Part shown: piece by piece, positions 4,441-37,500 of the stretch
Layout: the number at the start of each line of letters is the position of its first letter
Numbering within the stretch: the stretch's first letter is position 1
Assembly (NCBI GenBank): GCA_007922195.1
Contig: ML682123.1
Span: 202,050-266,049, forward strand
Source of the DNA: Podocnemis expansa
Taxonomy: Eukaryota; Chordata; Testudines; Podocnemididae
DNA: 64,000 nt
Direction of reading: 5' to 3'
Notes under the pieces: model-generated
What the model was told of the DNA's origin: nothing
Seen by the model: the letters and a program-made list of their open reading frames with translations, nothing else
Database searches by the model: none
Translations under genes and position numbers: made by a program

Positions 4441-5625
4441 CGATGTGGTCATGTAGGGAAGGGGGGAATAGCCCAACAGGTTCTCACATCTTGGTTTGCA
4501 CCAGGAATTCATTTGGAGGCAGCTAGAGTGGCTCAAACTTGCCCTACCTGTCGAGCATTTAACCAACAGCCAGTTCTGTCCCGACAGAAGGGAGGACGTC
4601 CATGGGCCTATTTACCATTTCAGAAACTACAAATTGATTATATTGACTTACCCAAAGCGAATGGGTACAAACACTGCCTGGTCATAGTCGACCAGCTCAC
4701 AGGATGGACTGAGGCTTTCCCTGCAAGGAAGGCAGATGCTGCTGCAGTTGTAAAGGCTCTCCTAAAAGACATTGTACCAAGGTTTGGACTTCCAGAAGAA
4801 ATCAATTCTGATTGTGGCACTCACTTCACTGAGAAAGTCCTGCAAGAGGTGTACAAGGCGCTTGGTATTGTAGCCTGGTTTCACACCCCTTACCACCCTC
4901 AGTCCTCAGGGCAAGTAGAAAGAATGAACCAGAATATTAAGACCCTGTTAGGAAAGATCTGCTCTGAAACTAGGTTAAAATGGCCAGATGCACTTTCAGT
5001 GGCATTACTGGGTCTCAGAACCAGGCCAAAGAAACCATTGGGCCTGTCTCCTTTTGAACTGCTGTTTGGTCATCCTCCTGTGTTGTATAAAAGGTGATCA
5101 AACCCTCATGTTAGTCTTCTGGGGGGAGATGATGGGCTAACTGATTATGTTTTATTGTTGCAGAAGTCTTTTCGTTCTCTTCATAAGTCTGCGGCCTTGG
5201 CTCAACCGGTACCACTGGACTGTAACCTACATTCTTATCAGCCAGGCAACTGGGTCTGGATCAAACAATATAAAAGAAAAGACGCTCTTGCCCCGAAGTG
5301 GACCGGACCATACCAGGTGCTGCTCACCACACATTCTGCAGTTAAAGTTGCTGAAAAGGATAGTTGGATTCATCATACTCATCTCAAGCCTGGACGAGAA
5401 CCAACTCCTGTGGCAGTGACTCCTGTGGTTTCTGACCCTCAATTGCAAGAAGAGGAAAAGGAAAAGGCATTAATTCCACCTATCTTGCTAAAAAGACTGA
5501 GTGAAGACCATTGGACTGTAAGTAATGCTTGGACTGGAAGGTTCCTTTCCCATTTTCTTTGTACTGGGATTAGGAATTTTAGGACTCATTTGGGGTTGCT
5601 TCTGTTGGAAGCATCGGCAAAATAA
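4430..5625 (+). pseudogene. pol: ERV integrase (broken)
   Basis: An HHCC zinc domain opens with HRCGH and closes with CPTC near 4540. The catalytic core follows: the Asp in QIDYID (about 4630), the Asp in NSDCGTHF (about 4806), and the Glu in SGQVERMN (about 4907-4930), giving D,D-35-E. An internal TGA at 5095-5097 cuts the frame, and the C-terminal SH3-like part resumes in the same frame (5155-5625) with GNWVWIK and WTGPYQV. The end of pol overlaps the start of env, as in gammaretroviruses. Two independent lesions flank the core. Confidence 0.87.
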
Positions 5626-8340: not shown

Positions 8341-9416
8341 CAGTTTTTCCCTGACACTGTTTCAAACAAGGAGTCCTGTAGCACTTTAAAAACTAACAAA
8401 TCTATTAAGTCAGGATTCCTTGTTTGTTTTGCAGCCATTAGTGTTTCCCCCCAGTTGCCAAACATCTGTAAATTTACAGACAGTCAGTAAAATAGTATGC
8501 AAGTTTCTTACTGTCCATGAGTCTGTAATTAAAAAGAAAAGTCTGTAAAAATCTCTCCCTCACCAGCAGCCTGTTGACTGCCTCCTCCTTTAGCATAGGA
8601 ATCCCAGTCCCCAAGCAAGGCAGTCCATCTCCTGCAGGCAGCCTGAACCAGGGCCCCCTCCTATGCAGCACAGCAGGGAAGGGAGACCTGAGTTCAACAA
8701 GGCTCCCCTCCATCTGAGTCAGGACACTGTCCTGGGGCTACAGAACCAGCTCACGTATGTTGGCTGGGAGCAGATTGTCTAGGACAGAGGCTGCTCCAGA
8801 ACCCCATCAGTGATCGCTAAGAAGAACTGAGCAAAGCCCCAAGCCGCTCACACTGCGTATCATGTTAGGTTGGAATCTGATTCGCTGCCAGGATTGAAAA
8901 ACCCTCCTTGTGTTTTTAAACATCAAAAGTTTTGTTTATAACCCAAATTTCCACACACACATACACACTTACCTCCCCCAGTCCTCCCCTCTAACTCTGT
9001 CTCCCCATTTCCAGTTAGCCTAGGCTAGTTCCAAAAGGGGTAGCAAAAGTCTAGTCCAACAAAACAAGCAAGGAGCCCTGTGGCACTTAAAGACTACATC
9101 TGTCAGTCTTTAAGTGCCACAGGACTCCTTGCTTGTTTTAGCATAGGTTGTTTCTCCAGACCAGAGTCTGGACAGATTGTTACTATGGTTCTTCTTTGAG
9201 CCTGACCTTCCCAGTTCCTTCTTTCCACCCTCAGCAATGGTACTGGAACAACAAGGAGTTGTGTGGCACTTTAAGACTAACAGATTTATTTTTTGCATGA
9301 GCTTTCGTGGCAGGAGATCCCACTTCCTCAGATACTTCAATGGGATACTGGAACAGCCCACCTTGCAATTAAGCAAGCACCTCTCTCAGTCACCTTTGTT
9401 ATTATGAGTAAAGATT
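8341..9416. other. Spacer between provirus and DIRS element
   Basis: No gene seen. It holds three copies of a dispersed motif close to AGGAGTCCTGTGGCACTTTA (about 8367, 9068-9130 and 9257), a CA-rich run near 8953, and the hairpin listed separately. The rest shows nothing I recognise. Confidence 0.6.
9061..9139. repeat. Near-perfect inverted repeat (hairpin)
   Basis: Two arms of about 34 bases, AACAAGCAAGGAGCCCTGTG... and its complement, face each other around a loop of about 9 bases (ACATCTGTC). Both arms carry the dispersed GTGGCACTTAAAGACT motif, so two copies lie head to head. Confidence 0.85.
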
Positions 9417-10070
9417 ATGCCAGGATTCAAACCCTGCACGGTTCACTACAAGGCATTCCTGATTGACAACCTTCATGAGAGATGCCTCTCCTGTCTGGGT
9501 GAGTCTCATCTGGTGGACAAATGTCCCATATGCAAGTTGTTCAAGAGAAGAACCCGTAAGGATAGGGAGTGGAGGCTTCGGAATATCACCCAGGATCGGG
9601 CAAGGCTACTGGCTGTGGGTACGCCCACTAAGCCTAAGGACTTGCTGGGACCACATGCCAGATCAGCACCGGAAAAGACCTGGCACTGCTCTCCAGCTAT
9701 TACTAAAAAGCCACAATCGTCCTCTGACTCGGCACTACCTCGATGTTGTGCCACCTCACTGCCAGGTACTCCACCTCAGAGAAAGGATTCAGTGCGCATC
9801 CCCATCCCCTTGACACCGGAGGCATTTGTGGTGGCAAGAGCCCTTTTGGAACCGACATCCCTGGCACCACATAGGTCATTACAGTCAAAAGGGAAATCGC
9901 CCCTCTCAGCCAAGGAGTGGTACTCTATGGCAGAGACGGCACCAACCTCGGAGCCGACAGCAGAGTCATCCCTGATACTGGAAACAGGCACCACCCCGGG
10001 ACCAGAGGAGGAGTCAGCCAATGGTTACCTCTCATCACCCGTATTGGTACACGAACTGTTGGTACCATGA
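9417..10070 (+). pseudogene. DIRS gag-like ORF with zinc knuckle
   Basis: A 217-codon open frame. Residues 23-36 form C-X2-C-X4-H-X4-C, followed by a further CPIC and a basic stretch (KRRTRKDREWRLR), then a Ser/Pro/Thr-rich region. This pattern recurs in reptile 'lamina-associated polypeptide 2-like' gene models that come from DIRS elements. The frame is open but the downstream element is ruined, so I treat it as a relic. Confidence 0.65.
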
Positions 10071-10410
10071 TCACAGGGATCAAGAAGAGCACGATCAACT
10101 TCAGCTTCATTGGCATTGTCAGACGACGAACCGCAGCACCATCAATCTCCATCATCCCCGGAACCGACTTCCAGCAGGGGAGAAGCATGCTGGTAAGTGG
10201 CGCCGTAAATGCTCCCCAGCTCCAAAGCAACTCACCCCTCAGTACCCAAGCGTGCACACCTGCGGCACCATCTCCCTCACTGACCCAACTAGCACCGGGG
10301 GGAATATGGAGCAGGCCCCAGAGTGGGTTTTATAGCAAGGGTGGCTCCCAAAAGGAGAAAGGACGCTCTGGGGCAGACCTCAACTCCACCCCTAGATCTT
10401 TCCAGGAAAA

Positions 10411-10597
10411 CAGGGGTGGCCAAACTTATGGAACTCAAGAGCCACACAAGTTGATTATTAAACCTTCAAGAGCCGCACTGAGGCATATAGCCATATATTT
10501 TTACCTACTAAATTGATTTGCTTACATTCTTCCATGAGCCACGCTTTTTCATTCAAGAGCCACATGCAGCTGCCATGCCGCAGTTTGGCCATGCCTG
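10411..10597 (-). mobile_element. Short hAT-type MITE
   Basis: Ends are CAGGGGTGGCCAAACTTA and its near-complement AGTTTGGCCATGCCTG. Its body matches part of the larger element at 41978-42421 in opposite orientation (shared GAGCCACA and TATAGCCATAT words). No 8-bp duplication is clear at its flanks. Confidence 0.75.
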
Positions 10598-10888
10598 GTC
10601 TAGTAGGTGGCTCAGCTACCCTTCAGAGGATGAGCCTGCATCATTGCGACCCTCAGCACTGTCATCTCCTAGGTCTCCTTGCTCCTCAGACAACGAAGCC
10701 AACTCCAGCACCGCACGGTACCACAGATCATGAATTCTTTCTTCCTCTTCTCCAGACGAAGCAACTTACCAACAACTTTTATCGTACAGGGATGACCCTC
10801 GTGCCCAACAGGATCTACTTAGACGCATGGCAGCAAATTTGAATTTGGACCTGGGGGTCGTAAAGGAACAGTGCAACCCCCTATTTGA

Positions 10889-11395
10889 TTGGGGGATGCT
10901 GCCCCACCTACTAAGGTCTCAGTTCCACTACATGAGGGGGTCTACAGCATTGCAAAAGCACAGTTGATAACCCCCTCTTCCATTCCCCCCATGTCCAGAG
11001 TTGTGGACTGGAGGTACAATGTTCCTGCTAATAAATTTTCCTTCCTCTTCAACCACCCTACACCACACTCCCTGGTGGTGGATGCAGTTAACTATAGGGA
11101 GAGACAGGCCCAACCTAGCTCCACTCCCAAAAATAAAGAGATGATGAAACTTGACCTTTTTGGTAGAACGGTTTACTCCATCTTAGCTCTACAGCTCCGC
11201 ATAGCAAATTACCACGCCCTCATGGGGAGGTATGCTTTTAACCTCTGGGGAGCACTAGAAAGATTTTGTGATATGGAGCCCAGGGAACGCCTCAGGGATT
11301 TTGAGACATTGATTGAGAAAAAGGTATTGGTCGCCAGTGGCATGTTAATGACATTGTGGGACGCATCTGTCACTGCTTCTCGCAACATAGCCTAA
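10889..11395 (+). pseudogene. DIRS gag C-terminal (LAP2-alpha-like) block
   Basis: A 168-codon frame with a Val-Asp-Trp-Arg-Tyr block near residue 39 and helix-rich sequence around FGRTVYSILALQLRIANYHAL, typical of the DIRS-derived LAP2-alpha C-terminal fold. Low-complexity Gln-rich sequence follows at 11600-11690 in another frame. I saw no sign that it is a host exon. Confidence 0.6.
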
Positions 11396-12084
11396 GCAGT
11401 GTCGATGTGCAGATCGGCCTGGTTACACAGCTCTGGTTTGTCACAACAAATGCAGCAAAACATTCAGGACCTTCCTTTCGAAGGCCCAATACTGTTTGCA
11501 GAATCTACTGATTCTAAACTGCACAGGATGAAGGACTCTAGGGCCACCCTAAAATCCCTGGGCATGTATGTGCCACGGGAGGTTAGACATTTGTTCAGGC
11601 CCCAACAGCCTCAGGAACAGTCCCAGCAGCTGCAGCAACAAAATCAAGCATGGGGGTCACAGCAGGGGTCTTGCCAGCAGCCTCAGCATTCCTGTGGGGG
11701 GCTGGAGATGGAAAGGAACCGGGTCCTCAAAAACCCAATCTTCAGCCCAGACAACCTGCCAAGGGAACAGTAGCTCCTGATTGGCCAGCCAAAAACAGTG
11801 TTTATGACAAACAGTTAGAGGGCCCCTGTTCCCCTACTCAGCCCCTATTATTCAGCAATGGTTTGGCTCAGTTTCTACCTCAATGGGTCAGAATCACAAC
11901 TGACTGCTGGATATTTTGGATATGATATCCAAAGGATACTCAGTTCAGTTCAGATCCATATCCTGAGACAAGACCCCAACCCCTTGTTCATTTCTCGGGG
12001 ATCCAGAGCTAGATCTTCTACTACAAAGGGAATGCAAAAAGCTGCTCTCCCTAGTGGCCATAGAAAGGGTCAATGGGAAAAAGG

Positions 12085-13200
12085 GTTCTACTCCTGTTTT
12101 TCCTAGTTTCTAAACCAAATGCCAACCTGAGACCCATCCTGGACATCAGGGCACTAAACAAACATCCAAAGAAAATAAAATTTCATATGGTTTCCTTTTT
12201 GCAAATCATCCCTGCTCTAGATCAAGGGGATTAGTTTGCAGCCCTCAGCTTAAAGGATGCTTACTTTCACAATGCAATAAGGTCAAAGCACAGAAGGTTT
12301 CTCAGATCTGTAGTGCAAGGGAATCGCTATTAATTCATGTCCCTCCCATTAAGGCTCACCTTAGCCCCCACGGTTTTCACAAAATGTATGGTGGCAGTGG
12401 TGGCACATCTGTGGCGGTAGGGCATAAAGATTTACCCATACCTCAACAACAGTTAATAAAAGGAAAGTCCAAGCATCATGTTCACCACAGCATCTCCATG
12501 GTAAAGAGACTGTGCAATCGCCTGGGGCTTTGCATAAAGAAAGAGAAAGCCAAACCTGTTCCAACCCACAAACTAGAATTCATCGGAGCCTTACTGGACT
12601 CCAAGCAGGGCAAGGCTTCACTTCTCCATCCAGATTTTCCATCATCTCGGAACTCCACAGGACTCCAGTTACCACAGCCAGACAGTACCTGCAGTTATTG
12701 GGCCACGTGGCGGCCTCAATCTCAGTGATAAGCACAGCCCATCTAGGAATGAGATCGTTCCAGCTCTGGGTAGCCTCAGCCTTCCATCCCCAGAGAAACC
12801 TCAAGAACAAGGTATTGTTAATTCCCCACAAAGTCTTAGAAACTCTTGAAATATGGAAGGACCCACTCTTTGCCAAGGGCAGGATTCCCTTCGAGACCTC
12901 GAATTCCAGTGACTCTGATCACAGATGCATCAGACACAGGTTGGTGGGCACACATCTCAGGGGGAACTTTCAACCCAAGGGACATGGGCCCTCGTATATA
13001 AACCCCTTCACATAAATGTGAAAGAACTCAGAGCCATTCGTCTAGCTTGCCAGGTTTTTCTGGACCTGATAAAGAGGAAGACAGTCCATGTTCTAACAGA
13101 CTACACAACAACCATGTTTTACACAAACCGGCAGGGAGGAGAGCACTCCCCGATCCTCTGTGCGGAAGCCCCAGCCTTTGGGAACTCGCTCTGAAACACA
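12085..13200 (+). pseudogene. DIRS reverse transcriptase and RNase H remnants
   Basis: Around 12130-12250 one frame reads ILDIRALNKH, then a KFHMV block, then LKDAYFH, the DIRS RT start motifs, broken by a TAG near 12233. RNase H-like sequence lies at about 12915-13150, with TDAS, HINVKELRAIRLA and VHVLTDYTT spread over frames. Several stops and shifts separate the parts. Confidence 0.65.
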
Positions 13201-15983: not shown

Positions 15984-15998
15984 TTTCGGTTTCGTTTC
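15984..15998. promoter_or_regulatory. Interferon-stimulated response element-like motif
   Basis: TTTCGGTTTCGTTTC contains TTTCNNTTTC, the reverse of the IRF-binding GAAANNGAAA core, plus a third TTTC. It lies about 625 bp before the CARD start codon in GC-rich sequence. The motif is seen directly; that it drives the CARD-GTPase gene is inferred. Confidence 0.6.
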
Positions 15999-16621: not shown

Positions 16622-16892
16622 ATGGCATTCGAGACGATCCGCCAGGGACGGGAGCGACTCATCGCCCTCCTAATAACAGCCCCCGACCTCGTTTTGGATG
16701 AAGTGGCCTCACTGGGAATAGTCACTGAAGAAGATTATGAGGCCCTGGAGAAGCTCTCGGAGCCCAGGGAGAGGATCCGAAGGCTGCTGATAAAGGTCCA
16801 GAGGAAGGGGGAGCGCGGCTGTGAGCAGTTCCTGGAGTGTCTGAAGAGCCTCTTCCCAGACTTGCCTCCAGATTTACAGCCCCCAGCACACG
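16622..16892 (+). CDS. Exon: CARD domain
   Basis: It encodes about 90 residues with the six-helix CARD pattern: [12 protein letters not shown] (helix 1), [18 protein letters not shown] (helices 2-3), [11 protein letters not shown] (helix 4) and [16 protein letters not shown] (helix 5 to end). The domain fills the exon, as usual for shuffled CARD exons. The donor is ACG|GTGAGC at 16893 and leaves phase 1. The ATG at 16622 has G at +4. The frame stays open upstream to at least about 16570, and TCTACAAATCCCAG at 16584-16597 could be an acceptor, so a 5' exon or longer start is possible. Confidence 0.85.
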
Positions 16893-19800
16893 GTGAGCTG
16901 GGGACTCCCTAATCACTTCCAGTTTTGAGCTTAATTGAGTGGAAGAGACACAAAATGTGACCAGGACACAGCACCAAATGGCTGCATGTTGGTGACATGG
17001 GAACTAAAGGCTGCAGGGGTGGGGCTGGGTGTCCATACTCCTGGGTTCTATCTTTGACATTTGGTGGAGCTTTCCAAACAGATCGACCTCTGTGTCTGCA
17101 ACATTCCTTGAAACCTGAGGATTTAACCCCAAATCCCCCCATTCTGACCCTGCCCTTAAAAAATTTGTTACAGTCCCCTCACTCATGTAACATCCTTCCA
17201 CCATAGACCATAGGATTTCTTTATCTGTTTTTAACCATTTCTCTCTCTCATGAGGAAACTAAAAAGTAGGACAACAGCCAGCAGACTCAGGAAAGCAGCT
17301 GAGTGCTCAACAGGCTACAGAGACATATCCCCCTTCTTTCGTAACCAAGTAAGTGCCCTGAATTGCAAAGAAATCTGTAAGATGATTTGTTCTCATTGTT
17401 TTCCCTTTGCAGGGTGCATGACTCAGACAAATGAAGCCGAGAATCCAGAATGTGGCACATCTTCTGAGAAGAATGGAGAAGAAAATCCAGAAGCTGCCAT
17501 AACCTTGGGGAAGAATGAGCTAGAGCACCCGGGAAATGCTCTGCCACATGAGGAGAATAAACTAGAGTCTCCAGAAACCACTCTACCATGTGATGCCAAT
17601 GATCTCAAGGATCCAGAAACTGCTGTACCACATGAGGAGGATGGTACAGAGAATCCAGACTGCATCCCATCTTCCGGGAAGATTGATCCACAGAACACAG
17701 AAGATGCCATGTCCTCAGAAAAAAATGATCCAGAGAGGCCAGAAGAACCTGAAAAGTCAGAAACAGTGTTGTCCTCAGGGAAGGGACCAGTGACACCAAA
17801 TTGTGCCACATCCCCAATGCAGGATGGCTCAAAAAATTCAGAGACTGCTTTTTCCTCAAAGAAGAATGATCCAGAGAGCCCAGAAGGTGCCAGATCCCAA
17901 GAGAAGGAGGCAGCTGCTGTGTCCTCAGAGACAGCAGATTCCAAAGGTAACAGATGGGTCTCTATAGACTTGCCTGTAGGACAATATTTAAGCAGTATTG
18001 CTGGTTGTCCTGCACTGAGCACAGGACCCCAGGGGGTTCTCCTCAGCACCAGATGAAGAGGGACTAAAGGGAAGCTGTGCTAGAATGCAGTTGTAGGAAA
18101 GGTCCCGTTCTGGTGTGTTTGGATCCCTTCTGAGAACAGAAGGTGCTTTGGGCTGCATGGACCCAAATGGAAATGATTGCTCGGATGGGTTGGGGTGGGG
18201 GTGGATAGAAGGTGCTTCTCCTAATCCACACAGCTCTGTGGAGCCAAGTCAACTCAGCCAGAAACCCCATTTCACACAGCCTAGCACCTTGTGCTCAGTT
18301 CCAGCCACTTCAGCTACAAGATGGGTTCCTCCTCTATCATTTTATCAAGGCTGAAGTAAGACTTCAGGCAGTCTGGTGCACTTAAAGGGATTCATTGGGT
18401 GGAGCAAGAATCAAAAGACACTCCATAAACATTGGGCTGGACAAAGTCTGTGGCCCAGATCTACAGGCTTCAACCTTCCACTGGTCTGAACCTAGAAGAC
18501 TTTCGCTTTTATTGTTTTGTAGGGTCTGGAAATAGCCCCAGCCATGGAGAAGAAATAAGTCCCACTGCAGTCAAAGGGAATGTTGAAGGTAAGGTCTCTC
18601 CTCAGACTCTACTGACACCTCAGGGATAACTTGGGGAACTATTCAAGGATGCATGGAAAAGAACCTGGTCTGGTGGGGTAGAACAGGAGGGGTTGAGAGT
18701 CAGGACTCCTGAATTCTATCCACAGCTCTGAGAGGGGAGTGGGGTTTAGGGTGTTAGAAGAGAGGGAGACTGGGGGTCCAGGCTTCCAGGTCCTAAACTT
18801 ATCTCTGGTTGGCCGGATGGTGTTTCAGGAGAACAGGTTTGAGGGAGGGGGGCAGAGATCAAGAGGATTCTCTGGGAAGGATTCAGGCCTGGTTTAGTTC
18901 AGTTCTGCACTGGCTTAAAGGTTTGATCTGTAGTCAATAGAATTAAATCAGTTGTATGTGTCTCATAGACCTTAAGGCCAGAAGGGACCATCATGGCCAT
19001 CTAGTCTGACATTTTGCACATGGCATGCCACAGAACCTCCCCTGTCCACTTCTAGAATAGAGCATTAGCCTCTGGCTAAGTTATTCAAGTCCTTAAGTCA
19101 TGCCTGTAAACACTAAATTAGCGAGAATCCACCATTGACACTAGTTGAAATCTGCAGGTGACCCAGGCTGCAGAGGAAGGGGAAAACTCCCAAGGTCTTT
19201 GCCAATCTGACCTGGGGAAAAACTCCTTCCCAGCCCAAATGTGGTGATCAGTTAGATCCTGTCATGTGGGTGAGACCCAGCAGCTAGACACCAGGGAAGG
19301 AATTCTGCATAGTAACGCAGAGCCCTCACCATCTAGTGTCCTGTCATTGGTCATCAGGGATATTTGCTGCCGGCAGTCACGGATCAGTGATGTGCCATTG
19401 TAGGCTGTCCCATCCTCTTCATAGACTGACCAAGCTCATTCTTGAAGTTAGATAGGTTTTTTGCCCAGACTGCCCCCCTTAGGAGGTTTTTCCAGCTCTG
19501 ATGGTTAGAAACCTTCCTCTAATTACAAGCCTAAACTTGTGGCTGGCCAGTTCTGTCCATTTGTTCTTATGTCCACATTGGTGCTTAACTTAAATAATTG
19601 CTCTCCTTTCTTGGTACAGCTAGTCCTCACTTAGTGACCTACTCGTTTAGTGACCCCTCAGAGTTATGACCGGCTCTCTGATGAGTTGGTATTATGGCGA
19701 TGTACGAGAACTCGCATCAACTCTCTCAGATTACCTATATTTACAGTACACTATGCAAACTAAGTTCAGTACATTAGAGCTTAAAACATTTAAAATATAT

Positions 19801-22800
19801 ATGAAAAATGTTATAAATGATGCAAAGGTGACATTAAAACTATCTACCGATGGTTGAAAAACCCACTACCAGTAAAGTACATTATGCCTGAAATACCGGT
19901 AAGGGCTGCTCCTCGTTTAGTGACCAATTCGTTTATCAACCAGGTTTCAGGAACGGAACCCGGTCACTAAGTGAGGACTACCTGTATTTATCCCTCTGAT
20001 GTACTTATAGAGAGCAATCATATCTCCCCTCGGCCTTCGTTTGGTTAGCTTAAACAAGCCAGGCTCTTTGAGTCTCCTCTCATAAGGCAGGTTCTCCGTT
20101 CCATGGGTCATCCTAGTAGCTCTTCTCTGCACTGGTTCCAGTTTGAATTCACCTTTCTTAAACATGGGAAACCAGAACTGCACATAATATTCCAGATGAG
20201 GTCTCACCAGCGCCTTGTGTAACAGTACTAACGCTTCCCTATCTGGAAATTCACCCTGATGTACCATAGAACTGCATGAGCATTTTTCATGACCACATCA
20301 CTTTGGGGATTCGTAGTTATCCTGTGATCAGCCAGTACACCCAGATCTTTCTCCTGCTCTGTTGCCTCCAACTGGTAAATCTCCAGTTTACAGCATAAAT
20401 TCCTGTTGTTAGCGCCTATGTGCATGTCCTTGTACTTTACACTATTAATCATTCCATTGCTAATTCTCCAGTTTTCAAGGTCATCCAGATCATTATAGAC
20501 CCATCCTTGGCTGTAGTAGTAATACCTCCCAACTTTGGGCCATACATCGCACATTCCCACTTTTTGTGCTAAGGTCACTAACAAAAATGTTCAATAAGAT
20601 TGGCCCCAGGATCAATTCTTGAGGAGTTCTGCTAGTAACTTCTCTCCAGCCTGACAGTTCATCTTTCAGTGTAGTCTCCCCTTTAATCAGTTCTTTACCC
20701 ACCTTTCAGTTCTCAAATTAATCCCCATCTTCTCCAATTTCACTGATTATTCCCCCTGTGGAACTTTATCAGATGCTGCACTGAAATCCAGGAAAATTAG
20801 ACCTACTGCATTTTCCTTGTCTAAAAAAATCACATATCTTCTCAAAAAAAGAGAGAGGTTGGTCTAGCACAATCAGCCTTTGGTAAAACAGTGGGATTTT
20901 TTTATGCCAGTTATGATTTAGCTCTATGTCCTTAACTATGCTCTCTTTCAAAATTTGTTCCAGGGTCTTGCATACAAATGAGGTCAACTTAACAGCCTTG
21001 TCAATTCTCATATCCCTTTTTCTTCTCTTTTTTTTAAAAAAAAAAGTTATTAGGTATTACATTAACAATCACCCAGTCATGAGGTCTAACCCAGGGGTGC
21101 CCAAAGTTTTCAGACATGGGGGCCGCAGAGCCTGATTGGTGCAGGCCCACAGGCTGCAAAATTCTAAAACCAGTTCTTTTTGCACTATACATGATAGACA
21201 GTTATAAATTTTCAGTATATATCTATTGTACTCTTTCATCACTGCTATTTTTTGCTAGCAAATTAAACACAGGTTTTCTGTCATGCTCAATAACCTTTCC
21301 CTTACACCCCCACCTTGCACCGTCATTTCCCCTGAGTCCTCAGCCCCTTCCCTTACACCCCCGCCCTGCGCCACTGCTTTCCCCAAGTTCCGGCCCTTGT
21401 CTCACACCCCTGCCCTGTGCCGCCACTTTCCCTGAGTCCAAACACCTTCCCTCATGGCACAGCCCTGCATTGCCACTTTGCCCGAGTCTCAGACCCTCTC
21501 CTTTACACAGCTGCCCTGACCACTCTGGAAGCCATGCCATGTGGCAGGGCTCCCATCCAGAGCATGCTCTGAGCGTGCTTAGGACAGGAGATTTTCAGAA
21601 CTCCCAGGCTGGGTTGGGCTGCTCCCTGCCACAGCAGCCGTATTTTTTCTATTTCCGGCACTGCGGCTGACCTGGTTAAAATTTTTTATTTGGCAGGGCT
21701 GCGGAAAAGCTGTTTGTGGGATTCATGTGGTGTGAGGGCTGCACTTTGGGAACCTCTGGTCTAACCCCCAGGTTTAAGGATTTCTTAAAAGTCCTGCTAT
21801 TGGCTTGCAATATCATGTGCCAATTCCTTTAATGTTCTTGGATGGAGGTTACCCAGATGCACTGATCTGGTCCCATTAAAATTATTTGAGTTTGGTTTCT
21901 ATGTCAGATGTGATCACTCTACCTCCATATCCTTGTTTGGAGGATTAGGTACTGTCTAATCTGGAGGCCTCAAAGCCCTCTTGGAATCATGCCATTAAAT
22001 TGGTACAGCTGCGTGCCTCAGTTTCCACATTCACCACTCTTAGTACATGCCCAAAATTTTACTAAAATTCTACACACAGTACATTTAACTATAAAGATTG
22101 CATGCATATCAGAACCACTACTACTTAATATAACATCAGCATCAAATTGTCTTCATAGCTGGGTGCTTACAAGTATGTGCCCATACAGCACCCTTTGTTC
22201 ATGCAGTCTGGTTCCAAGGTTGATTTAACCCTTTGCCCTAACCAACCTCCTCCTGGATCCTTATGATGTTGAAATCCCAGGATTAGGGGTAACAAGAATG
22301 TGGGGAGGATCCTGCATGCCAGCTGGCCCCTTGTGGATACATTCCCCAGTTCCTGGACTATACATGTCTAGGTGGTCACTCCGTGATTCCCCTGACTAGC
22401 ACTGCATTCCTTCTTCCCTCCCTGTCCTAAGGGGCTGTCAAGTGATCCCTTTGGGCTGCTATGGTCTGCAGCTGGTGTATTCAGCACAAATGCATCAGTG
22501 TCACCTCCACAGTGAAACTGCCCTTCCTTCTGTCAGCAGTCAGGATAAAATATTACCAAACTGGATTTTCTGACATAAAGAAGCAAAGTTAATTTTCATC
22601 GTCACCTCAAGATAGCACAGTCCCCTCCTGAAAGCCAGGGTGCAGCCTGAGTATCTGTGTACAGAGACCCTGAGTCAGCCCCTCCCTCTTGGGCACCCAT
22701 CCCCCAAGTGAGTAGTGGACAGACACTCCTGCACCTACACAAATTCTTCCTTAGCCGTCATCTCTGGTTCCTGCCCTGGGGCACAGCCCTCCAGGGCCAG

Positions 22801-25800
22801 TGCTGCCTCCTGGGGTAGATAAGAGTCACCTTCCACCCTCCCCCCACCAGGAGAGGTGCTGGCCTCCTCCATTGTAAATCCTGGGGTTTCACCTCCCCTT
22901 CCTGGGCTCTCAGCAGGGTGCCCCTGGCTGTTGGCCCGTTCACCAGCACCCCATTTTAATGTTTCCCCAATTGACACCTCATTGTACACAGACAACCTAA
23001 CTTCACCAGATAACTCTGTGCGAGTAGAAGCTTTTGATTCTCCAAAAATCTCAGGGTCAGCACAAGGCTTTACAACAATGAGAAAGTTTTCTTTAAGACA
23101 ATTAGTCTCGTGGCCGCCAGGAATCAGTTCATCACAGCTGGTGTTGCAGGTGTTGTAGGAGGCTCTGGAATACCTGGAATGACTGCCTTCCTGACACTGA
23201 TTCTCTGCCAGATTTTCTTCTCCTTCTCTGGCTCTCTCTATAGCTTCTTTGATCTTCTGCATAGCTTCTTTGTAGTTTCCTGCACCGGTCTGAATTGCAG
23301 TCAGAGCTTCGTCTACAAGCTTCAACTCCAAAGCATTTCTGCAGGCAGTTTCTTAGGCCTCTCTGGCCATCTCTTCTGTCATTTGCATCTCTGCCTGACA
23401 TCAAATCACATTCTCTTTCTCTCTTTCTTAGCGTTCTTTGTCCTCTTCTTGCAGCCCTAGCAATCTCCAATTCTACTTTTGCCTCCCTAATGTCAATTTT
23501 TTCGGTTTCCCTGTGCTTAATTCCTTCTCCCAAAATAAAGAAACAGAAAACAACAAACCATGGCCTTCTGACAGTTCCATCACTATGCAGATAACTTACT
23601 TAGAATTGCTCAATAAAAGCAACAGGCTGGGGCACAAAACTTTGCTCTCTGCACCACTGTGACAGGCTGCTCCCCTGATCTGGTCTGGTGTGCTGCTGTG
23701 ACCTGCCAGTTCCCATGCCTGAACCCCAATTCACCCCTCTTTGCCAAGTGACCACTCCTTAGTCAGTCCATTCCAGCCTCTTGCTTGCAACCAGTCCCTG
23801 GCAGTGGGTGTATGCCCTTGGCTGACTTGAGGGACAGTCCCCAAGCGAGCACCCCTGGCCCCAGATACCACTATAGGAGCCACTGTCTCAAGAGATTGGG
23901 ACCCAATCCCAATCACCATCCACTCTAGTCTGTCCATTTAACAAAGAAATGGATCGTACGCAGCCTTCTTCACTCACACCTTCTAAAGATCACACAGCTT
24001 TAGATAAAACAACTACCAGTTTATTGATCAGACTATAATTCTAAGTGAGAATATGGCAAATCATGGCAGAATCACCATATAAATGAGTCAGGAGTGACCA
24101 CAAGGAGAAAAGAGGTAAAATATGCATACTAGCTTAATAGCTCTACCAGAATTGACCTCATAGTCCAAGTTCTTGCTGAAGATGTTTGACTGTCAGATGT
24201 TTGTACAGCCAGTCTCTGCCTGAGACCAGGCAGGGCCCAGATTTTGCTTGGAGTTGTTTCAAGATGAAGATTCTTAGGCAAAAAGCCCCAAATCCCTCTG
24301 GCTATGTCTACACTTAGGAAGGTTAGTTTGAATTAACTTAGTTTGAATTAATTAATTGGAACTAATAATGGTTAATTTGAACTAAGTTCATTTGAACTAA
24401 CATGGCCCTACTAGAAACCCAGGTCGAACCAGCACATCCATGGACAGGACTTGCTGGTTCTATTTAGGAAGGGGGCATCATGGGAAGTGTGGCAACATGG
24501 CCCCCAAGAAGGACCCTGCTCCCACGCAATACATAGAAAGAAGAAGGCACCCTGCAAGAAGGAAGGGCAAACTGCATTCATTCGAACTAACAGTTAGTCT
24601 GAATTAACACAACTCCATTGGGTTAGTTCGAACTAAAGTGAGATTTTACAAGTTCGAACTAACCTTCCCTTAGTTTGAACTAAGGAATTCCTTAGTTTTA
24701 CTAATGAAAGCCAGTATAGCCATGCACTAATTCTGTTCAGATTAATCCTCATTAATTCAAACTAAATTCCAAGAGTAGACATACCCTCCAAGTATCTCTC
24801 ATTGTTTTCGCTCCCCCTGATCCCTCCCCTTCTGGGCAGAGGGGATCTCTTCGTCTCATCTGAGCCACCCCATTTAGTATATCTTTGTTGCCTTCTCAAG
24901 GTACTTGTTTGCTTACAGCTGTGGTTGTTAACATGTTGCCAGGAGAGAGTTCTGTCCGTATCCCACCCCTATGAGCCATGCGACACATCTGTACACATGA
25001 GGCTGCAGTAAACATATCATAATAATCATGTAGAATAGGTTGTGAGGATCCATAAAGAAACCTTGCATGGCATAATTGGCGTAAAAACATACAATCATGG
25101 TGCATAAGTGAACAGAAAAGTCATATAGATCATAACCCAGGGTGCACAGCTGCGCATTCTGTGACACATAGAAACTGCAAAGGACCATGAGAGGTCAATG
25201 AGTCCAGTCCTCTGCATCATGGCAGGACCCAAGTACCCTCTTTAGCCACCCCTGACAGGTGTTTGTTTAACCTGCTCTTAAAAACTTCCAATGATGGAGA
25301 TTCCACAACCTGCCTAGGCAACTTATTCCAGTGGTTAATCACCCCGACAGTTAGGAATTTTTTCCTAATGTCCAACCTAAACCTCCCCTTGCTGTAATTT
25401 ATGCCATCTTGCCACTACCCTTAAGCTGCTCATTTCCATTATTACCTTTATTAAAAACTGAGGCAAAGTATTCATCTAAGAGTTGAGCCATGCCTAGATT
25501 ATCTTTAACCTCCAGATTCAGTGCTTAATGGTACCACCTCTTCTTTTCTTTGTATTTATATTGCTCTAAAACCTTCTATTATTGGTTTTCTTTTCCTTTC
25601 CAAGATCCAACTGTGCTTGGCTTGTGGCTTCTCTCACTTTATTCTTATGCTTTCTGACCACAAAGAAGTAGCTTCCCTTGCAGACCACTCCCATTTTCCA
25701 CCCATTAGGCTTTCTACTTTCCTCTCATTGCCTGTTTGAGATACGTGCTCACTCAGCTTGGTCCACAACCCTTCTTTATGAACTTTTTCCCCTTGCTTAG

Positions 25801-28800
25801 GATCAGGCTTTAGACAGTTCCTGCAACATTGACTTAAGGTAAATCCAGGCTTTCTGTTCACTCACATCCTAGAGTTCCTCAGACCCATCCACTTCCTTGA
25901 CTAATTCCCTTCATTTTGTAAAGGTTGTCCTTTTTAAATCAAGGAACCTAGTTGCAAGCTTATTTGTGTTTATTCATCCATTTAGTGTAAACTGAATTAG
26001 CTCATGATCACTTGAAACAAAGTTATTGACTACAACCAGCTCTTTTACAAGGTCTTCAGTACACAAATAAAATGGCCTCCCCTCTTGTTGGTTCAACAAT
26101 TATTTGGTGCAGAAATCTGTCATCTGTCACCTCCAGGAACATCTAGGCCCTCCTGTTATTAGCGACACTCTTTCGGCAATCTATATCTGGGAAGTTAATG
26201 TCTTCCATAGTTGGACAATTCCAGTATTATTTATTTCATTAAAAACTTTAAGGAGGTCTCTATCCGCATCCAAAACGGATTCTCTGTGTCTGTAGCTTAT
26301 CCCACACACCATCCTGGGAAGCCTCTGGTACCTGTCTTCTCCAAAATGATTTTTTCCTTAACAGACTCTGTCTTATCCATTCTAGCACTTCTGATTTCTT
26401 CTACATCATCATTGACATAGTAGCGCCGCTACTCCACTCTCTTAGCCTTTATTTCTTTTCCTGCCCAACACATACTGTTCAGCAGGGGCATCGCTGGCGC
26501 TGGGCACACAGGGCACGTGCCCTGAATCCCAGCGCCGGTGCCCCGGGTCTGGCGGGGCTTGCCCCCTCCCACTCTCCAGCCTGACTGGGCCAGAGATCTG
26601 GGGCCCAGCCGCCTGCAGCAGCGGCATCCCCGTCCCCAGCTGGGGATCCGGGGCTCAGCGCCCCACGACAGCGGCAGCCGCAGCCCCGGCGGAGGATCCA
26701 GGGCCAGCTGCCCGTGGCCACGGCAGCCCCGTCCCCGGCCGGGGATCCGGGGCCCAGCCGCCTGTGGCCACTTCTGGCCCCATCCCTGCCTGGGGATGCG
26801 GGGCCTGCGGGCCGGGGGCAGGGCCTGGGCCTGTGCCCCGGGTCCCTCCCCAGGGCAGCAACGCCCCTGCTGTTCAGTACCTGTACTCGACATGTCTAAC
26901 TATTCTGCTATGTTTCTGTTTTCTTTGTATACATGGTTTCATGTCCTGCACCAGTAATTATAGATCCTCCACTTAGTTACCTAGGCTCCTTGCATTGAGG
27001 TACAGATGTCTTAGTTGCTTCTGCTTGACTTTGCACAGATTCTTCACCAGATTTCAGTAGTCATTCTACTGCTAGTATTGCCAACCTGATGGTTAGAGAC
27101 TTTGGCCCTATATTCCCCCTTCTCTGTTCTGCTGTCCACTGCTGTTCCTTTCTCCAGTGGTATATCTTCTTTTACTTGATTTTCCTCCTGGTCAATATTA
27201 AAATCAGGCATGGAGAGTCTATGAACATCTCCCCTGCGTTTAAGGCTCTTTTAATCAGTTATGCCAACCTCCATCCCAGAAGTCTATTTCCCTACCTACT
27301 TGGGTGGAGTCCATCCCATAATAAGTCCTCTGCCCATGAACACCTGCCAATGGGCAAACATCCTAAAGTCCTCTTTATAGCACCACTGCCTGAGCAATCT
27401 CTTGATAATCATCATGGGCTGTGTTCACACACAGGCATTATTTCAATACAAGTTGTATCGAAACAACTTGTATCGAAATAATGCCTTATTTCAAAATAAC
27501 TTAATTCAAATTAACAGTTTGTTAATTCGAATTAAGGAAAAAAGCTCAAAGCAAAATAGCAGTTTCAGGCAACAGTTATTTCGAAACAAGTCACTGTTGT
27601 TTCGAAACAACATGTTCGGACGGCATGGTTTCGAAACAATCGTTTCGAAACAACATTGTTTCGTCCCCACATGGGGTTTAAGTTGTTTCGAAACGCCGTT
27701 GTTTCAAAACAACGGGTGCCATTGTTTCGAAACAACCGTGTGTCGTGTGAACAGGGTATTTCTTATTTCAAAACAACCTCTGTTGTTTTGAAATAAGAGT
27801 GCTGTGTGAACACAGCCATCTGGTCCTGCTTTTGTTCTCCTCCTAGAAGGACAGACAAAATCCCACTGAAGACCACATGAGCCTCCATTTCCTCAAGCAT
27901 CTTCCCCACGCTGGCAGAGTGTCCCTTGAGGCTTTCCAGTGAGAAGCTAGTGACATCATTGTTCCCATGTGAAGGAAAATCAGCAAATTCTTTCCTACCC
28001 ACTAGGATGCTCCTCAGCCTCAGGTACACACCTAATATCTTAGTGCCGGGCACACAGCACACCCCTTGTGTTCTTCAGATCAGCTCTAGTGACAGGTCTC
28101 CCTGTTGTTCTTGGCAGGCAGTCACCAGTGTCAAAGACATGCCTTTTTCTGGTGTTAGTGCAATGCTCTGGTCTTCCTCCTGTTCCTTCTGGCTGCAAGC
28201 AATGTTTCCTCTAATCTGCTGGTTCCCTGACGCCCACCGGGCCCCTTCCCCACTGCCCGCCAGCTCTCCGAGTGCATCCATAACTTGTTCAGCTGCATCA
28301 TCAGCTTAGAGGGAGCATTAGCCACCACCTTTATAAGGCAACATGGTATCTACCTTGACTCTGCTTCACTCTAGCTATGCCAACAAAAGCACTACACCTC
28401 TCAGCGAGATGGTTTTATTTAGTTGAAAAATATGGCAGTTTTGTTGGCTAGGGGGATTACAGCGTGCACACCAGCACTGTTTTAGTTACAAAAGCTGACC
28501 TGCTGACAAATACTCTAGTCAATGCAGACCAGATCTAGACAGCTAGTGTACTGCACTCCAGAGGCAGTTGTATTTCAGTGAAGGCTAAAGTGATTGATCT
28601 GTATAGCTGGTGTACTCATTTGCAGCAATCTTTTGCTGTAATGCTTTCAAATGGAAGGAGCTATAAAATGTAAGATTCCAAAGAGTTTAAATGTGAAAAC
28701 TAACAAGACTCCAGCACTTATAATACGTTCCGAAAGGGAAAGAGCTGGTCATTTGAGTGAGAGGCTAGAGAATGGGATTACTCAAAAATCCCCACCAGTG

Positions 28801-31800
28801 CCAATGATTAACAAAACAAATTGCCTTTAAATCAAGTTTCAAGCATACCAGTAAAAATACTTTTTCTTTTGAAAAATAGTATACATGTGCATTACAATGA
28901 AAGTATCAGAAACTACTTTATACACACAAGTGTAATCCACATTCCTTCCTGTCCTTCAGCAGTCTTACATGTTATATTCCTATATGTTCATTATTTTCAG
29001 TATGGCGGATGCACGCATTTTAATAGAAAAATTTATTCTTGTCAGAAGACTTGCCCAATTACTTAAATCATACTGTAGAAAAATAAGGTGTCAGTACAAC
29101 AAGTAATTAAAGGGGCAATTTTGTCCTTAGACACTTGAAGTGATTTATTTTGAATAAGACAATACAGTGAAGTTAAAAGCAGTTAGGTCGTTTCAGATTT
29201 GTTCTTTAACACAACTTTAATTTAATCACAGGCAGATTTGCCATAAAAACAGTACAAAACAAGTCGCAAGAAAAATAATTCTCATGTCTGATCCCTGTAA
29301 GAAATCTTGGAAAAAGACTTCCAAAGCCAGCAGAGTGAAGTGTCTGTCAGTTATTTACTCATCTAAATCTCCTATCTCCTATGGCCCTAGCCTAGAATAT
29401 TTATAAAATTCACAGCAACAACTAGGACTGGTCAGTTAAACATGCACAAATGTTAAAAACAAAAGCCCTAAATGAGCTCTGTGTTCACCTGAGGCTGTTA
29501 AAGTGCATTCCTCTTTCTAACAGGAGGAATAGACCCAGCCACCTTTCCCTGCATGCATATAAAAGCCACTTTTTGCTAGAGTATCTTGGGTTTATCAAGT
29601 ACCTTCCCACCTTTCAAGAGGACACTTAAAATTTAGTTACTTAAACCAAAAATCCCAAACAGCATTGTTAAGGTCGTGTTTTTAACTAAACTTCCATGAT
29701 TTGCCACATCAACTTGAAAGCCATTTGAACTGAAACTGCATTCCTCCATCAGATTTACCTTATTCATAACTGGCAAGAAATACAAAGCTATAACATTAAA
29801 AAAGGATATTTTTTAGCATAACACACCAATGATTATTATGATAGGTGGTCAGGATGAAAACAGCAGAAAGAGTCTTTGAGCTTGAAATGAATGGTAGACT
29901 TTACCATCTCCTTGCCTCATGGTCTTAAAACCACATTACCTAGGTCCCAGCAAACATAGCAGACTAGAAAATAGTGTCTGTTGAATTCAGATCTCCACAC
30001 ACGGGTTAAGCCAGGGGTGGGGCTTCCAATGGAAATCTTTTGACCCCCGGGCACCTTCCCCGAGCCGCCTGCCAGCTCCCCAACCCCCTTCCCTTACCCA
30101 TCCTCCTGCCAGCCCTCGATTCCCGGGGCCCTTCCCCAGCGGCTCCCTGAGTCCCCAACCACTGGGCACCTTCCCCAAGCCGCCTGCCAGCTCCCCAGCC
30201 CTCTTCCTTGACCTGCCTGCCTGCAATCTCCCTGATCCCACAAGCCCTTCCCCACAAGCTCCCTGATCCCCAGAGGCCCTTCTGCCTTACGAGGCTGGAG
30301 CTGCAGGGGCGTCCCAGTCATTTCCTGGCCAGGCTGCTCCTGCCTTGAGCACACATCTAAGCATTCTCAGGGCAAGAGGTTGAAAACTCCCCAGCCTGGC
30401 CAGGGCCACAGCTCCCTGTGAGTCGGATAAGGGCTGGATAAGAGCCGTGCATGCATGGGCATCAGTCATAGGTGCGTGGCATGCAATGGCCTCATGCATG
30501 CTGCTCAGAGGGAACATAGGCTGCAAGACCTCTTGTCTCTCGTTCTCTCTTGCAGTCTTCTGCAAGTATCCGGCATCCTCCTGGGGCTCCAAACTGGTCA
30601 TCTCCACCAACTCTTCCTCTCTTCTTGTGGGGCTAGCTGTTCTCTTATTCCTTTTTCTCCCAACTTCTGTTACCACCTGCTGTGTCCCTTCTTCATTTTC
30701 CAACCCTGCACACCTGTTCCTCAGCTCTTTCTCCTTCACTCATCAGTCTTTTTGTCTGCCTCATTCTCATAGACTCATGCTTCCACTGGCTATTTTCCGC
30801 ATCCAGAGGTCAGACCAGCCTGTATCTGGAAGCCTTGACTTTTCCCCTCAGCCTCTCCTCATCTTCCCTCTATCGGCTTGAATCCCCTTCTGAACTCAAC
30901 CATAGCATCCTCCTGCATCTCCAGACTTCAGGATTTTCTCTTCCATCAGTTCCACCAGGTGGCATTTCATACAAACAAAGCTCTTTTCAGGTACCCACTT
31001 CAAGATAAGATATGTCCTGGAGCTTCCGCATATGGTCTTCTTCATTGTCATTTCCATTCATTGCATCATCACCACAATGACCTTGGTAGCTGTCAGAGTC
31101 TTCCTGCCTAAGCACCTGTCAAGGAAAACAAAACAAACAAAATGCCCAAACACCTTCGTCCAAGCCCCCTTTCAGTCTGCCATTCAAACTCCCAGTTTTC
31201 AGCTGTTTACTGACTCCTATGCTGCTGCTCCTGTCCAGGGCATCCATCAACCTCGTATCTGGGCCGTAGACCCAACCCCCATTCCATAGCTCTGTCCTGG
31301 GTCATGCTGTCTCTCAGTCTGTGTCCTGGATCATGCTGTAAATTCGGTAGAAAACTGACACCAAGGACACCAGGGCACTGGAAAGGACTAGAGCATCTGA
31401 GCAGCTTCTTTTCTGGATCCATAGATGGGGCAAATCCTGACTCTGATGTCACCACACTGGAGAGCAGAGCCAAGATACCAGGAGTTGCCATGTCGTTGGA
31501 GAGGCATGGAGCTAAAAGACCAGAAAGTTCTGCATCGGCTGAAACTCCAGAGACATCTCCCAACAAAGTTCATGGAGGTAGAATCCAGACTACATTCCCC
31601 CCATTCCTCTCCCAAGTGGGAAAATGAGAGCTGGGTTTCCATGGCCTATGCCATCCTTGGGCTTGCTGTCGGCCAACAAGCAAGTCAGTTAGGGCCCTCC
31701 ACCTTCCCATGGGTCTTCCATCCAACATCTCCACCTTTTTATACCTGCCACACCCAAGCTTCTGCCTGTCTCCTGTGTGTTCTCCATCTGTAAAGCATTT

Positions 31801-34800
31801 GGAAGATGCCAGGATTGTACATACCACTGGACAGGGAATGGAAAGTCTTTTTGGTAGTGGATTCTTAGATTTCAAAATGGGGATTTTTCTCCCTTGATTT
31901 GAACCAAATCCCCCAAAATCCTCTGTGGGAGAAAATTCTGGGGTGGATGGGAAAGAGGGGGAAATTAATTGTTTCTGGGCCAATAGACACACACATCCCC
32001 CACAGGACCAGGAAGCCAGCTGGCTCTGCACATGGTTACCTGGCAACCCAGTGTGCCCACCTGGTCCTAATAAGCCCGCAGTAAGTGGCTGTGCTCCCTG
32101 ATTGGACAGAAGGGCCCATAGATCTGTATTTAAGTCCATTGCCAGAGCAGCTGCTTAATGTGTTTCACGCCCCCAGCTGAACTGGGCCTGCTGCCTGTCC
32201 AGCTTTTCTCCACTTCTCGGCTGGTCTACTCCAGACCAGCACCCTGCCTGCTTCTGAATCCTGGCTCACTGAATATCTGTATCTCATCCTTGGCTGGTTT
32301 CCAGATCGTGCCTCCACTGGTCTCTGATCCAGCCAGTATGCTGCATTGCCTACACCTTGGTGTGTGACACCTGCCCCACCAGTGGAGGGATCTGGATAAG
32401 CGACATCTCTCTAAACATTAGCTGGGACAGAATGTGTGAGTGGCTGGGTGGGTGAGATCCCTTTGCTTCTTAGGTTTTGTCCCCTTCATTGAGATGAAAG
32501 GAGCCAGCGTTTGAAGAAGGTGGGTGTCTGTCCACATTCACATGCTGGTCTCACCTCCCTGCAGTGAGTCCACAGCTCAGGCCAGGCCCCAGGAGGAATC
32601 AGCTAGGGAATGTGGCTACTTCCCAGTCTGTGAGTGAGATTCTGTTGAGATCCCACCCCAGGTAGGTGACAGCTTGAGACCTAAATCCTGGGAAAAGAGA
32701 CCAAGAGGAAACCAAGGTACAGTTGTTCCTGAGCTGTGACACCATCCTGGTTGGTGATGTCTTTATTGTCTGTCTGCAGAGAGAAGAGGAGCCGTGAAGG
32801 CCGTCCTGTCCAAGCTGAGACTGAGGAAGTTCAGAAAAAGGAAGCTCCGGCTAAGGGATCTCATGGAAATCAGCCCAGAGAGTCTGAAGGATTGGACACC
32901 TCGCATCTTGGAAGACTTGCCTGGGCACTTCCTCAGAAAGCTCATGGCTCTGAATGGGACAGCAAGAAGCACAAGCCTTGGGCAGGGGACATCTGATGAA
33001 GACACAAGTGAGGATGAGGAGGATGGGATGAGAGGGGAGGTGTTTTCTCTGAGGGCTTACAACTCTAGGAATACTCTGAACCCCCTGGATGTTCTCTGTG
33101 CTGTTCTGCTTTGCTCAGACAGTTTCCTACAGCAGGAGATCCTGACTAAAATGTCTATGTGCCAGTTTGCCCTCCCTCTGCTGCTACCTGCCCTCGATAC
33201 CCCCAAGTGCACGCTCATGCTGTGGGCCATGAGGGACATTGTGAGGAGGTGGAGACCACACTCCCTGGCAGAGAGCAGAGGGTTCAGAGAGGAAAGCCTG
33301 GTGCTCACCAAAATGCCAACCATTTCCTTTGTGCGGATGGGGACCTGCAGCTTCTCCAAGTCCAAACTCCTCAATGAGGTTCTCAGCCCCTGCCAGCAGC
33401 ACCATGATTTCTTCATCCATCGGGACATGGAGTCTGGGAACATCCCCCAAGAAATTGCAGATGGATTGGTTGAGATGTCCTGGTATTTCCCTGCTGGGAG
33501 GGAGAATTCAGATCTTTTCCCAGAGCCCATTGCAGTTACAAACCTGCGTGGAGACATTGAGTCACACTGGTTGCAGTTCAGCTTTTTAACAGAGGTCTCC
33601 TCAGCTGTGTTCATAGTTACTGAGAGCATTGGTGAGAAAGAATATACGTTGTTATCAACTCTGCAACGATCAGCCACTAAATACTACTTCATCTTTAACA
33701 GACAGGCTGGGAAAGCCAAGGAAACGCTGGGACTCCTCAATAAATTAGCCCCACTTCTGGCTATGAACAAATCACAACTTCTGGTAAAAGAAAAGAGTAA
33801 CAATAATGCAGAGCTGGTGAAAAAGCTGCAATCCATCTTCCGGAGCATCATAAGCTCCACTCCCAAGAGCATGAGCATCCAAGATATGGCTGTGACAGCA
33901 CGGGAGCTAGGGATTCAGGTGGAGGAGGATGGTGGAGAATGTCGGACTGCACTGGAGCATGTTGAAGAAATCACTGCAGAAATACAGGATGTGGCAAAAT
34001 ACAAGAGGGAAATGTTGAGGCTCCAGGGGGATCTGTGGAAGAGCTTGGCAAAGGTGGAGAAAGAGCTGTGTCGGATGAAAGACCAACGGGACATGCCTCT
34101 GGAAGACTATATATCCCAGCTGAGAGAGAGGTGGTTGGAGCTACGCAGGCAGCAAAATCAGTGTGACCTCACTAGTGGGATGGTTAAATTTATTAGTGGG
34201 ATAGGACAACTGAATCCAGTTGAGAAACATCACTTCTTGAAATGGATGAAGTTCCACCTGGATCAGATTGCCAGGGGGAACCTTTCTAGGTTAAGGGCTG
34301 ACTATAAAGAGAAATGTCGCACTCTAGAGGACAATGCACGGCAGCTGGCAGAACTAGATGAACTAATCTCTGCCAGCTCCTTAGGGGTGGAGCATTTCAT
34401 GCGTGAGTTGGGGCAATTTTATGAGGCCGAATGCTCAATGGTGAAAGAAGGGAATATGGGGAATATCCAAAGACAATTCATCTATCTCCCAGGCATAGGA
34501 GCTGACTTGATGCTGGAAGGGTTTCCCATTGAGCTGATCGATGGAGATGCTTCCAACATCCCACTGCAATGGGTGACGGATGTTATGATGGAACTCCATG
34601 CCAAGCTGCAGGGAAGATCAAGAATGCTGGTTATAACCGTGCTAGGAGTGCAGAGCACTGGGAAATCCACCCTCCTCAACACCATGTTTGGCCTCCGGTT
34701 TGCAGTGAGCAATGGCCGATGTACACGAGGAGCCTTCATGTCACTCATTAAAGTGGCAGAGACCTTTCAGGAGGAGCTGGGCTATGATTTCATCCTAGTG

Positions 34801-37500: not shown

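What the first reader, a model, noticed from the sequence alone, without database searches (positions are those of the whole stretch)
16622..37500. A CARD fused to a very large interferon-inducible GTPase
Four introns, all phase 1 with consensus ends and open frames, connect a complete CARD exon to a GVIN/URGCP-type GTPase with intact G motifs. Joining these gives a self-recruiting GTPase that could link pathogen-triggered assembly to caspase or adaptor recruitment. Death-fold fusions are known for GBP-type GTPases in fish; I know of no described CARD-GVIN protein. The exons and frames are seen, the domain roles are family knowledge, and the single transcript and any inflammasome-like role are inference.
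Basis: partly seen in the sequence, partly recalled or inferred. Interest (0 to 1): 0.88.

Follow-up and report, generated by a model that had tools for sequence, protein, structure and literature searches.

The report
CARD-tipped giant GTPase in turtles
A turtle gene joins a caspase-recruitment (CARD) domain to a giant antimicrobial-type GTPase, and similar fused proteins are predicted in other reptiles and in amphibians, which hints at a direct link between this little-studied defence family and cell-death signalling.

Summary
The five exons are as described: four phase-1 GT-AG introns join a CARD, a 251-residue acidic linker and a VLIG/GVIN GTPase into one 1914-residue frame. The fusion is conserved: 12 predicted turtle proteins share this CARD in front of a VLIG. 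In the ten turtle long forms aligned, the linker blocks follow in the same order, with small length differences. The CARD is 96% identical to Pelusios, the linker 75%. It is not unique: 68 of the 120 listed relatives (of 702) carry at least one such CARD, in turtles, alligators, squamates, tuatara, salamanders, a caecilian and a frog. Most bear generic names such as 'interferon-induced very large GTPase 1-like'; seven searches aimed at a CARD-GVIN paper showed none. New here: the CARD is nearest to ARC/NOL3 by sequence (profile E 2.2e-21, next 2.1e-7); exon 2 is a degenerate 14-residue repeat; eight short turtle proteins carry the CARD plus linker without the GTPase. Likeliest role: a GTP-driven coat that clusters CARDs to recruit a partner. 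That is inferred, and the ARC likeness leaves an inhibitory role open.

The parts
16622..16892 (+). Exon 1 (271 b, ends in phase 1): CARD; Pfam CARD match covers 16631-16879
   Evidence: Pfam PF00619 E 5.9e-14; model pLDDT 91.5
17413..17946 (+). Exon 2 (534 b): acidic linker of degenerate 14-residue repeats
   Evidence: borders; period; aligned in relatives
18523..18588 (+). Exon 3 (66 b): linker block SGN...VED
   Evidence: borders; block present in long turtle forms, with length differences
31425..31577 (+). Exon 4 (153 b): linker block GANPDSDV...NKVHG
   Evidence: borders; block present in long turtle forms
32780..37500 (+). Exon 5 (4721 b with stop): VLIG/GVIN body
   Evidence: open frame; Pfam
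33076..33975 (+). URGCP domain PF25496 (residues 99-398 of the exon 5 protein)
   Evidence: E 3.4e-125
34057..35247 (+). URGCP-like GTPase domain PF25683 (residues 426-822 of the exon 5 protein)
   Evidence: E 1.2e-203
34645..34671 (+). G1 P-loop GVQSTGKST (protein residues 964-972)
   Evidence: coordinates computed from it
34804..34815 (+). G3 DTEG (protein residues 1017-1020)
   Evidence: coordinates computed from it
17413..18056 (+). Frame that stays open past the exon 2 donor to a stop; would give a short CARD-plus-linker product if intron 2 were kept (hypothetical)
   Evidence: ORF 17235-18056; three short turtle proteins look like such read-through
15984..15993 (-). ISRE-core-like GAAACCGAAA about 0.63 kb before the ATG (weak lead)
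   Evidence: 10 matches in the window, 2.86 expected; not specific to this gene

Best explanation
A single gene of a turtle, probably side-necked, encodes a CARD-VLIG protein: an ARC-type CARD, a flexible acidic linker partly built of 14-residue repeats, then a VLIG/GVIN GTPase. It probably works like other interferon-type large GTPases: GTP-driven self-assembly on a microbial or vacuole surface packs many copies together, the long linker lets the crowded CARDs meet, and the CARD cluster recruits a CARD partner (ASC, caspase-1 or another), giving an inflammasome-like platform. Shown: reading frame, domains, predicted fold, conservation and spread. Inferred: expression, interferon control, assembly, partner and the sign of the signal.
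For: Frame and joints; domains; full-length relatives; CARD 82-96% identical in turtles and 57-68% in alligator and squamates, where the linker is 52-75% and 22-32%; one reptile clade of CARDs, 30 rows, support 100/98; predicted CARD fold; conserved basic residues in helices 1 and 4 and acidic ones in helices 2 and 3. Analogy: human GVIN1 forms a coat on bacteria (PMC11974893, passages and section 9); zebrafish Gbp4 enters the Asc speck through its CARD and needs its GTPase activity for caspase-1 activation (PMC4932187, passages); reptile GSDMA is cleaved by caspase-1 (PMC10948149, passages).
Against: No transcript, expression or binding data. The nearest CARD is ARC/NOL3, not a known activator CARD. 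52 of 120 listed VLIG relatives show no such CARD, so the GTPase does not need one. Short CARD-only forms exist in some turtles. The ISRE-like site is not specific.
Confidence: 0.5

Rival explanations
1. The fused protein is real but its CARD is a brake of the ARC kind: it occupies caspase or adaptor CARDs, so the GTPase coat restrains cell death at infected sites.
For: Nearest CARD by sequence is ARC/NOL3 by a wide margin and it ranks first by fold; an acidic stretch follows the CARD, as in ARC (recalled); short CARD-plus-linker forms in turtles look like decoys.
Against: Identity to NOL3 is only 32 of 79; by fold NOD1 is within 1 Z unit of ARC, a tie; NOL3's place among the VLIG CARDs is unresolved; ARC's inhibitory role is recalled, not tested here.
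Confidence: 0.2
2. The protein is made, but its main job is the GVIN-type coat that immobilises microbes; the CARD only tunes self-assembly and no caspase or adaptor is recruited.
For: Human GVIN1 coats bacteria and blocks actin tails (PMC11974893), and 'card' has 0 occurrences in that text; 52 of 120 listed relatives show no such CARD.
Against: CARD kept far better than the linker with conserved opposite charges, and multiplied to two or three in 12 listed proteins.
Confidence: 0.16
3. Two products: the CARD and exon 2 form a separate short ARC-like gene or isoform ending in intron 2, and the VLIG is read from its own start; the joined protein is mainly a gene-prediction product.
For: Eight short turtle proteins, four of them named 'nucleolar protein 3-like'; the frame past the exon 2 donor stays open to 18056 in the window; a CARD-less Natator protein with its own start.
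Against: Linker blocks of exons 2-4 recur in order in ten turtle long forms; CARD-VLIG is predicted in many species from several sources; in Malaclemys the short form differs in its CARD from the long one, so it is another copy; the Natator start got no hit in the window.
Confidence: 0.07

Closest known systems
Predicted reptile and amphibian VLIG proteins with CARD, 'interferon-induced very large GTPase 1-like' or 'up-regulator of cell proliferation-like' (e.g. P0004 Pelusios, P0019 Alligator, P0030 Heteronotia)
   Same: Same order CARD, linker, URGCP, GTPase; the turtle ones match over the whole length
   Different: Linker length and sequence differ, short in squamates; some relatives have two or three CARDs; no functional data seen for any of them
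Human GVIN1 (VLIG family)
   Same: VLIG/GVIN family GTPase; a flexible linker before the large GTPase domains (PMC11974893 section 9)
   Different: Described there as intronless, 1808 aa, with an N-terminal domain not called a CARD; 'card' has 0 occurrences in that text
Zebrafish Gbp4 (GBP with CARD)
   Same: IFN-gamma-inducible GTPase fused to a CARD that joins Asc (PMC4932187 passages)
ARC/NOL3 (apoptosis repressor with CARD)
   Same: Nearest solved CARD by sequence and first by fold; acidic stretch after the CARD (ARC's is recalled)
   Different: ARC has no GTPase (recalled); 32 of 79 residues identical; its place relative to the VLIG CARDs is unresolved

Membership tests
CARD domain | Profile match above Pfam's cut-off | tested here: met
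   52.3 bits against a cut-off of 23.9
CARD domain | CARD-type helical bundle | tested here: met
CARD domain | Opposite charged patches used in CARD-CARD contacts (recalled as type I interface) | tested here: inconclusive
   Basic residues in helices 1 and 4, acidic in 2 and 3, in 17 or more of 25 rows; acidic residues also in helices 1 and 5; no binding test
VLIG/GVIN GTPase | URGCP and URGCP-like GTPase domains | tested here: met
   E 3.4e-125 and 1.2e-203
VLIG/GVIN GTPase | G1 and G3 motifs | tested here: met
   GVQSTGKST and DTEG; canonical [NT]KxD not found
VLIG/GVIN GTPase | Body coded by one very large exon (recalled) | tested here: met
   4721-base exon 5
VLIG/GVIN GTPase | Induced by interferon | not testable with these tools
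   Only an ISRE-like site, in a window with more such sites than expected
ARC/NOL3 | ARC-like CARD | tested here: met
   Best match by sequence; first by fold but tied with NOD1
ARC/NOL3 | Small protein of CARD plus acidic tail without a GTPase (recalled) | tested here: not met
   The joined product is a 1914-residue GTPase; so not filed as ARC
Inflammasome sensor | Triggered assembly that activates caspase-1 | not testable with these tools
   Needs cell assays

The most novel reading that the evidence does not exclude
Reptiles and amphibians carry a whole undescribed class of giant immune GTPases tipped with swappable death-fold modules (one to three ARC-type CARDs, or a PYD) that act as GTP-driven inflammasome-like coats. 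ARC/NOL3 is the orphaned N-terminal half of such a protein, and turtles have repeated that split with CARD-plus-linker genes that may act as decoys for the full-length protein.
Probability: 0.25. Interest if true: 0.85.

Novelty: new variant of a known kind. Interest (0 to 1): 0.6.

Why it matters
The 2025 study of human GVIN1 says that the biological function of GVIN genes had remained enigmatic and shows a coat on bacteria (PMC11974893, passages and section 9). The eLife Insight on it (PMC12133148, whole text) asks whether the still unknown cofactors of GBP1 and GVIN1 take part in processes such as inflammasome activation. A reptile VLIG with its own CARD would make a link between a GVIN coat and death-fold signalling testable within one protein, and it offers a possible origin for ARC, a human death regulator (recalled).

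Tried and rejected
Own genome: the genome search (own, PF00619) was sent five times unchanged and not answered, so copy number in this genome is unknown. A SAM-like domain at the start of exon 5 was suspected: Pfam at E up to 10 gave nothing for its first 73 residues, and the model of the first 420 residues is poor (pLDDT 52.4) and was not used for a fold search. GAS-type TTCNNNGAA: 11 found, 18.67 expected. Poly(A)-like signals are scattered through intron 3 and settle nothing about a short form. The tree (89 rows, 83 columns) did not settle NOL3's place among the VLIG CARDs (branch 0.9, open fork), so the ARC-origin idea stays a hypothesis. A paper on the ARC CARD structure was searched for and not found; others (NOL3 evolution; mostly 'cardiac' papers) led nowhere. 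PMC4337061 (passages) reports a VLIG-1 strongly induced by interferon in salmon cells, no CARD link. No bird, mammal or fish is named in the 120 rows shown, but 582 of 702 hits were not shown, so absence is not claimed. The paper listings shown are also partial (20 of 232, 20 of 72, 20 of 961).

Full report
What is in the sequence. A first try with two wrong borders gave in-frame stops. Exon 1 is a CARD (PF00619, E 5.9e-14); exon 5 holds URGCP (3.4e-125) and URGCP_GTPase (1.2e-203) domains. G1 GVQSTGKST and G3 DTEG are present, a canonical [NT]KxD is not.

Is it one protein? The search with the joined protein gave 702 proteins, 120 of them listed; the best match over the whole length (Pelusios 85%, Emydura 84%). 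A search with the CARD alone among long proteins gave 15 proteins, 12 of turtles (10 named species) and 3 of geckos, all with CARD and VLIG domains in the precomputed Pfam column. An alignment of ten turtle long forms (P0017 is a shorter isoform of 1684 residues), the alligator protein and eight short turtle proteins shows the linker blocks of exons 2, 3 and 4 and the start of exon 5 in the same order in the long turtle forms. Lengths differ a little: P0005 has the exon 3 block twice, and P0004, P0012 and P0015 lack a few residues around its end. tblastn of 18 relatives' first 430 residues found in the window only the five exons and their edges; P0068, with a long N-terminal extension, gave no hit. 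The relatives are gene predictions; their reads were not open to me.

Selection. Against 19 chosen orthologues (9 turtles, 1 alligator, 9 squamates) the CARD is 82-96%, 68% and 57-67% identical, while the linker, counted on aligned residues only, is 52-75%, 28% and 22-32%. The GTPase domain is 77-92%. A CARD kept while its flank decays suggests a CARD in use.

Spread. With a CARD profile grown from the window's CARD, 68 of the 120 listed relatives have at least one CARD; 62 of these also have a CARD in the Pfam column. Fourteen have two or more hits; of these, P0011's second is a 28-residue piece and P0069's a 48-residue piece, which leaves 12, and P0023 and P0087 have three. CARD-positive sources include turtles, two alligators, many squamates, Sphenodon, Ambystoma, Lissotriton, Rhinatrema and Mantella. 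In the Pfam column, counted by eye with domain meanings recalled, 6 of 120 have a PYD (P0068, P0091, P0100, P0101, P0106, P0113) and 5 have Ig domains (P0080, P0108, P0109, P0110, P0115). A tree of 89 rows and 83 columns puts the window in a clade of 30 (100/98) with turtles, alligator and squamates, the eight short turtle proteins included. Pelusios and Emydura as nearest kin point to a side-necked turtle (inference).

The linker. 251 residues, 15% Glu, 12% Ser, 10% Pro, net charge -30. The exon 2 part has a 14-residue period: lag 14 z 7.7, lag 28 z 7.9, not reached by any of 1000 shuffles at lags 5-39. By eye, similar P/E-rich stretches stand before the GTPase in other VLIG proteins with a CARD (P0019, P0092) and without one (P0067).

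Evidence pulling the other way. Eight short turtle proteins have this CARD and part or all of the exon 2 linker; four are named 'nucleolar protein 3-like', three 'CARD domain-containing protein', one is misnamed TOM40-like. Three (P0127, P0128, P0129) look as if they read past the exon 2 donor, four (P0125, P0126, P0130, P0131) end at the same place, one (P0124) looks frame-shifted. Malaclemys has a long form (P0009) and a short one (P0131) that differ in the CARD, so the short one is another copy there. The shared end in Terrapene, Mauremys and Malaclemys suggests an inherited short gene (inference); others may be fragments. In the window the frame past the exon 2 donor stays open to 18056. 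The CARD-less Natator protein P0016 begins MDEGTAS before the exon 5 part; its match in the window starts at residue 9.

How it likely works. Human GVIN1 forms a coat on bacteria (PMC11974893, passages and section 9). Zebrafish Gbp4, a GBP with a C-terminal CARD, enters the Asc speck through that CARD and needs its GTPase activity for caspase-1 activation (PMC4932187, passages). Reptile GSDMA is cleaved by caspase-1 (PMC10948149, passages). By analogy the CARD-VLIG would assemble on a target and offer clustered CARDs. Expression, assembly, partner and sign are inferred; the ARC likeness makes a brake the main rival.

Novelty. Seven searches aimed at a CARD-GVIN or CARD-VLIG paper showed none among the rows listed; the other three were on ARC and fish GBPs. 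The library lacks most subscription papers. The proteins themselves are in public databases. I file this as a new variant of a known kind: a VLIG GTPase with a death-fold module, comparable to but distinct from fish GBP-CARD.

Noticed in passing
window 1866-7560 (+): Retrovirus-like pieces: aspartyl protease, RNase H, integrase and envelope domains in separate reading frames.
   Followed up: no
window 9408-13015 (+): Several open frames that look like a second retroelement from memory; the two scanned (9408-10067, 10889-11392) had no Pfam match.
   Followed up: no
window 53264-58273 (-): Very long C2H2 zinc-finger frame, 1669 aa; resembles ZNF646 from memory.
   Followed up: no
relatives P0068, P0091, P0100, P0101, P0106, P0113: Turtle VLIG proteins with a PYD (PF02758) instead of a CARD; five others carry Ig-type domains, which may be merged gene models.
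   Followed up: partly
relatives P0020, P0021, P0026: VLIG proteins with two CARDs beginning MGNGSS, which looks like an N-myristoylation signal (recalled).
   Followed up: no
relatives P0125, P0126, P0130, P0131: Short turtle CARD-plus-linker proteins that end at the same place: a possible inherited CARD-only decoy gene.
   Followed up: partly
relatives P0011, P0014 (Mantella): Frog proteins of over 3200 residues with a CARD in the middle (near residues 1613 and 1580); possibly two VLIG units in one model.
   Followed up: no
relative P0128 (Platysternon): A CARD-plus-linker protein deposited under the name of a mitochondrial import receptor subunit TOM40-like protein.
   Followed up: no
window, whole: GAAANNGAAA cores are more frequent than in shuffles: 10 found, 2.86 expected, 0 of 100 shuffles reach 10.
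   Followed up: no
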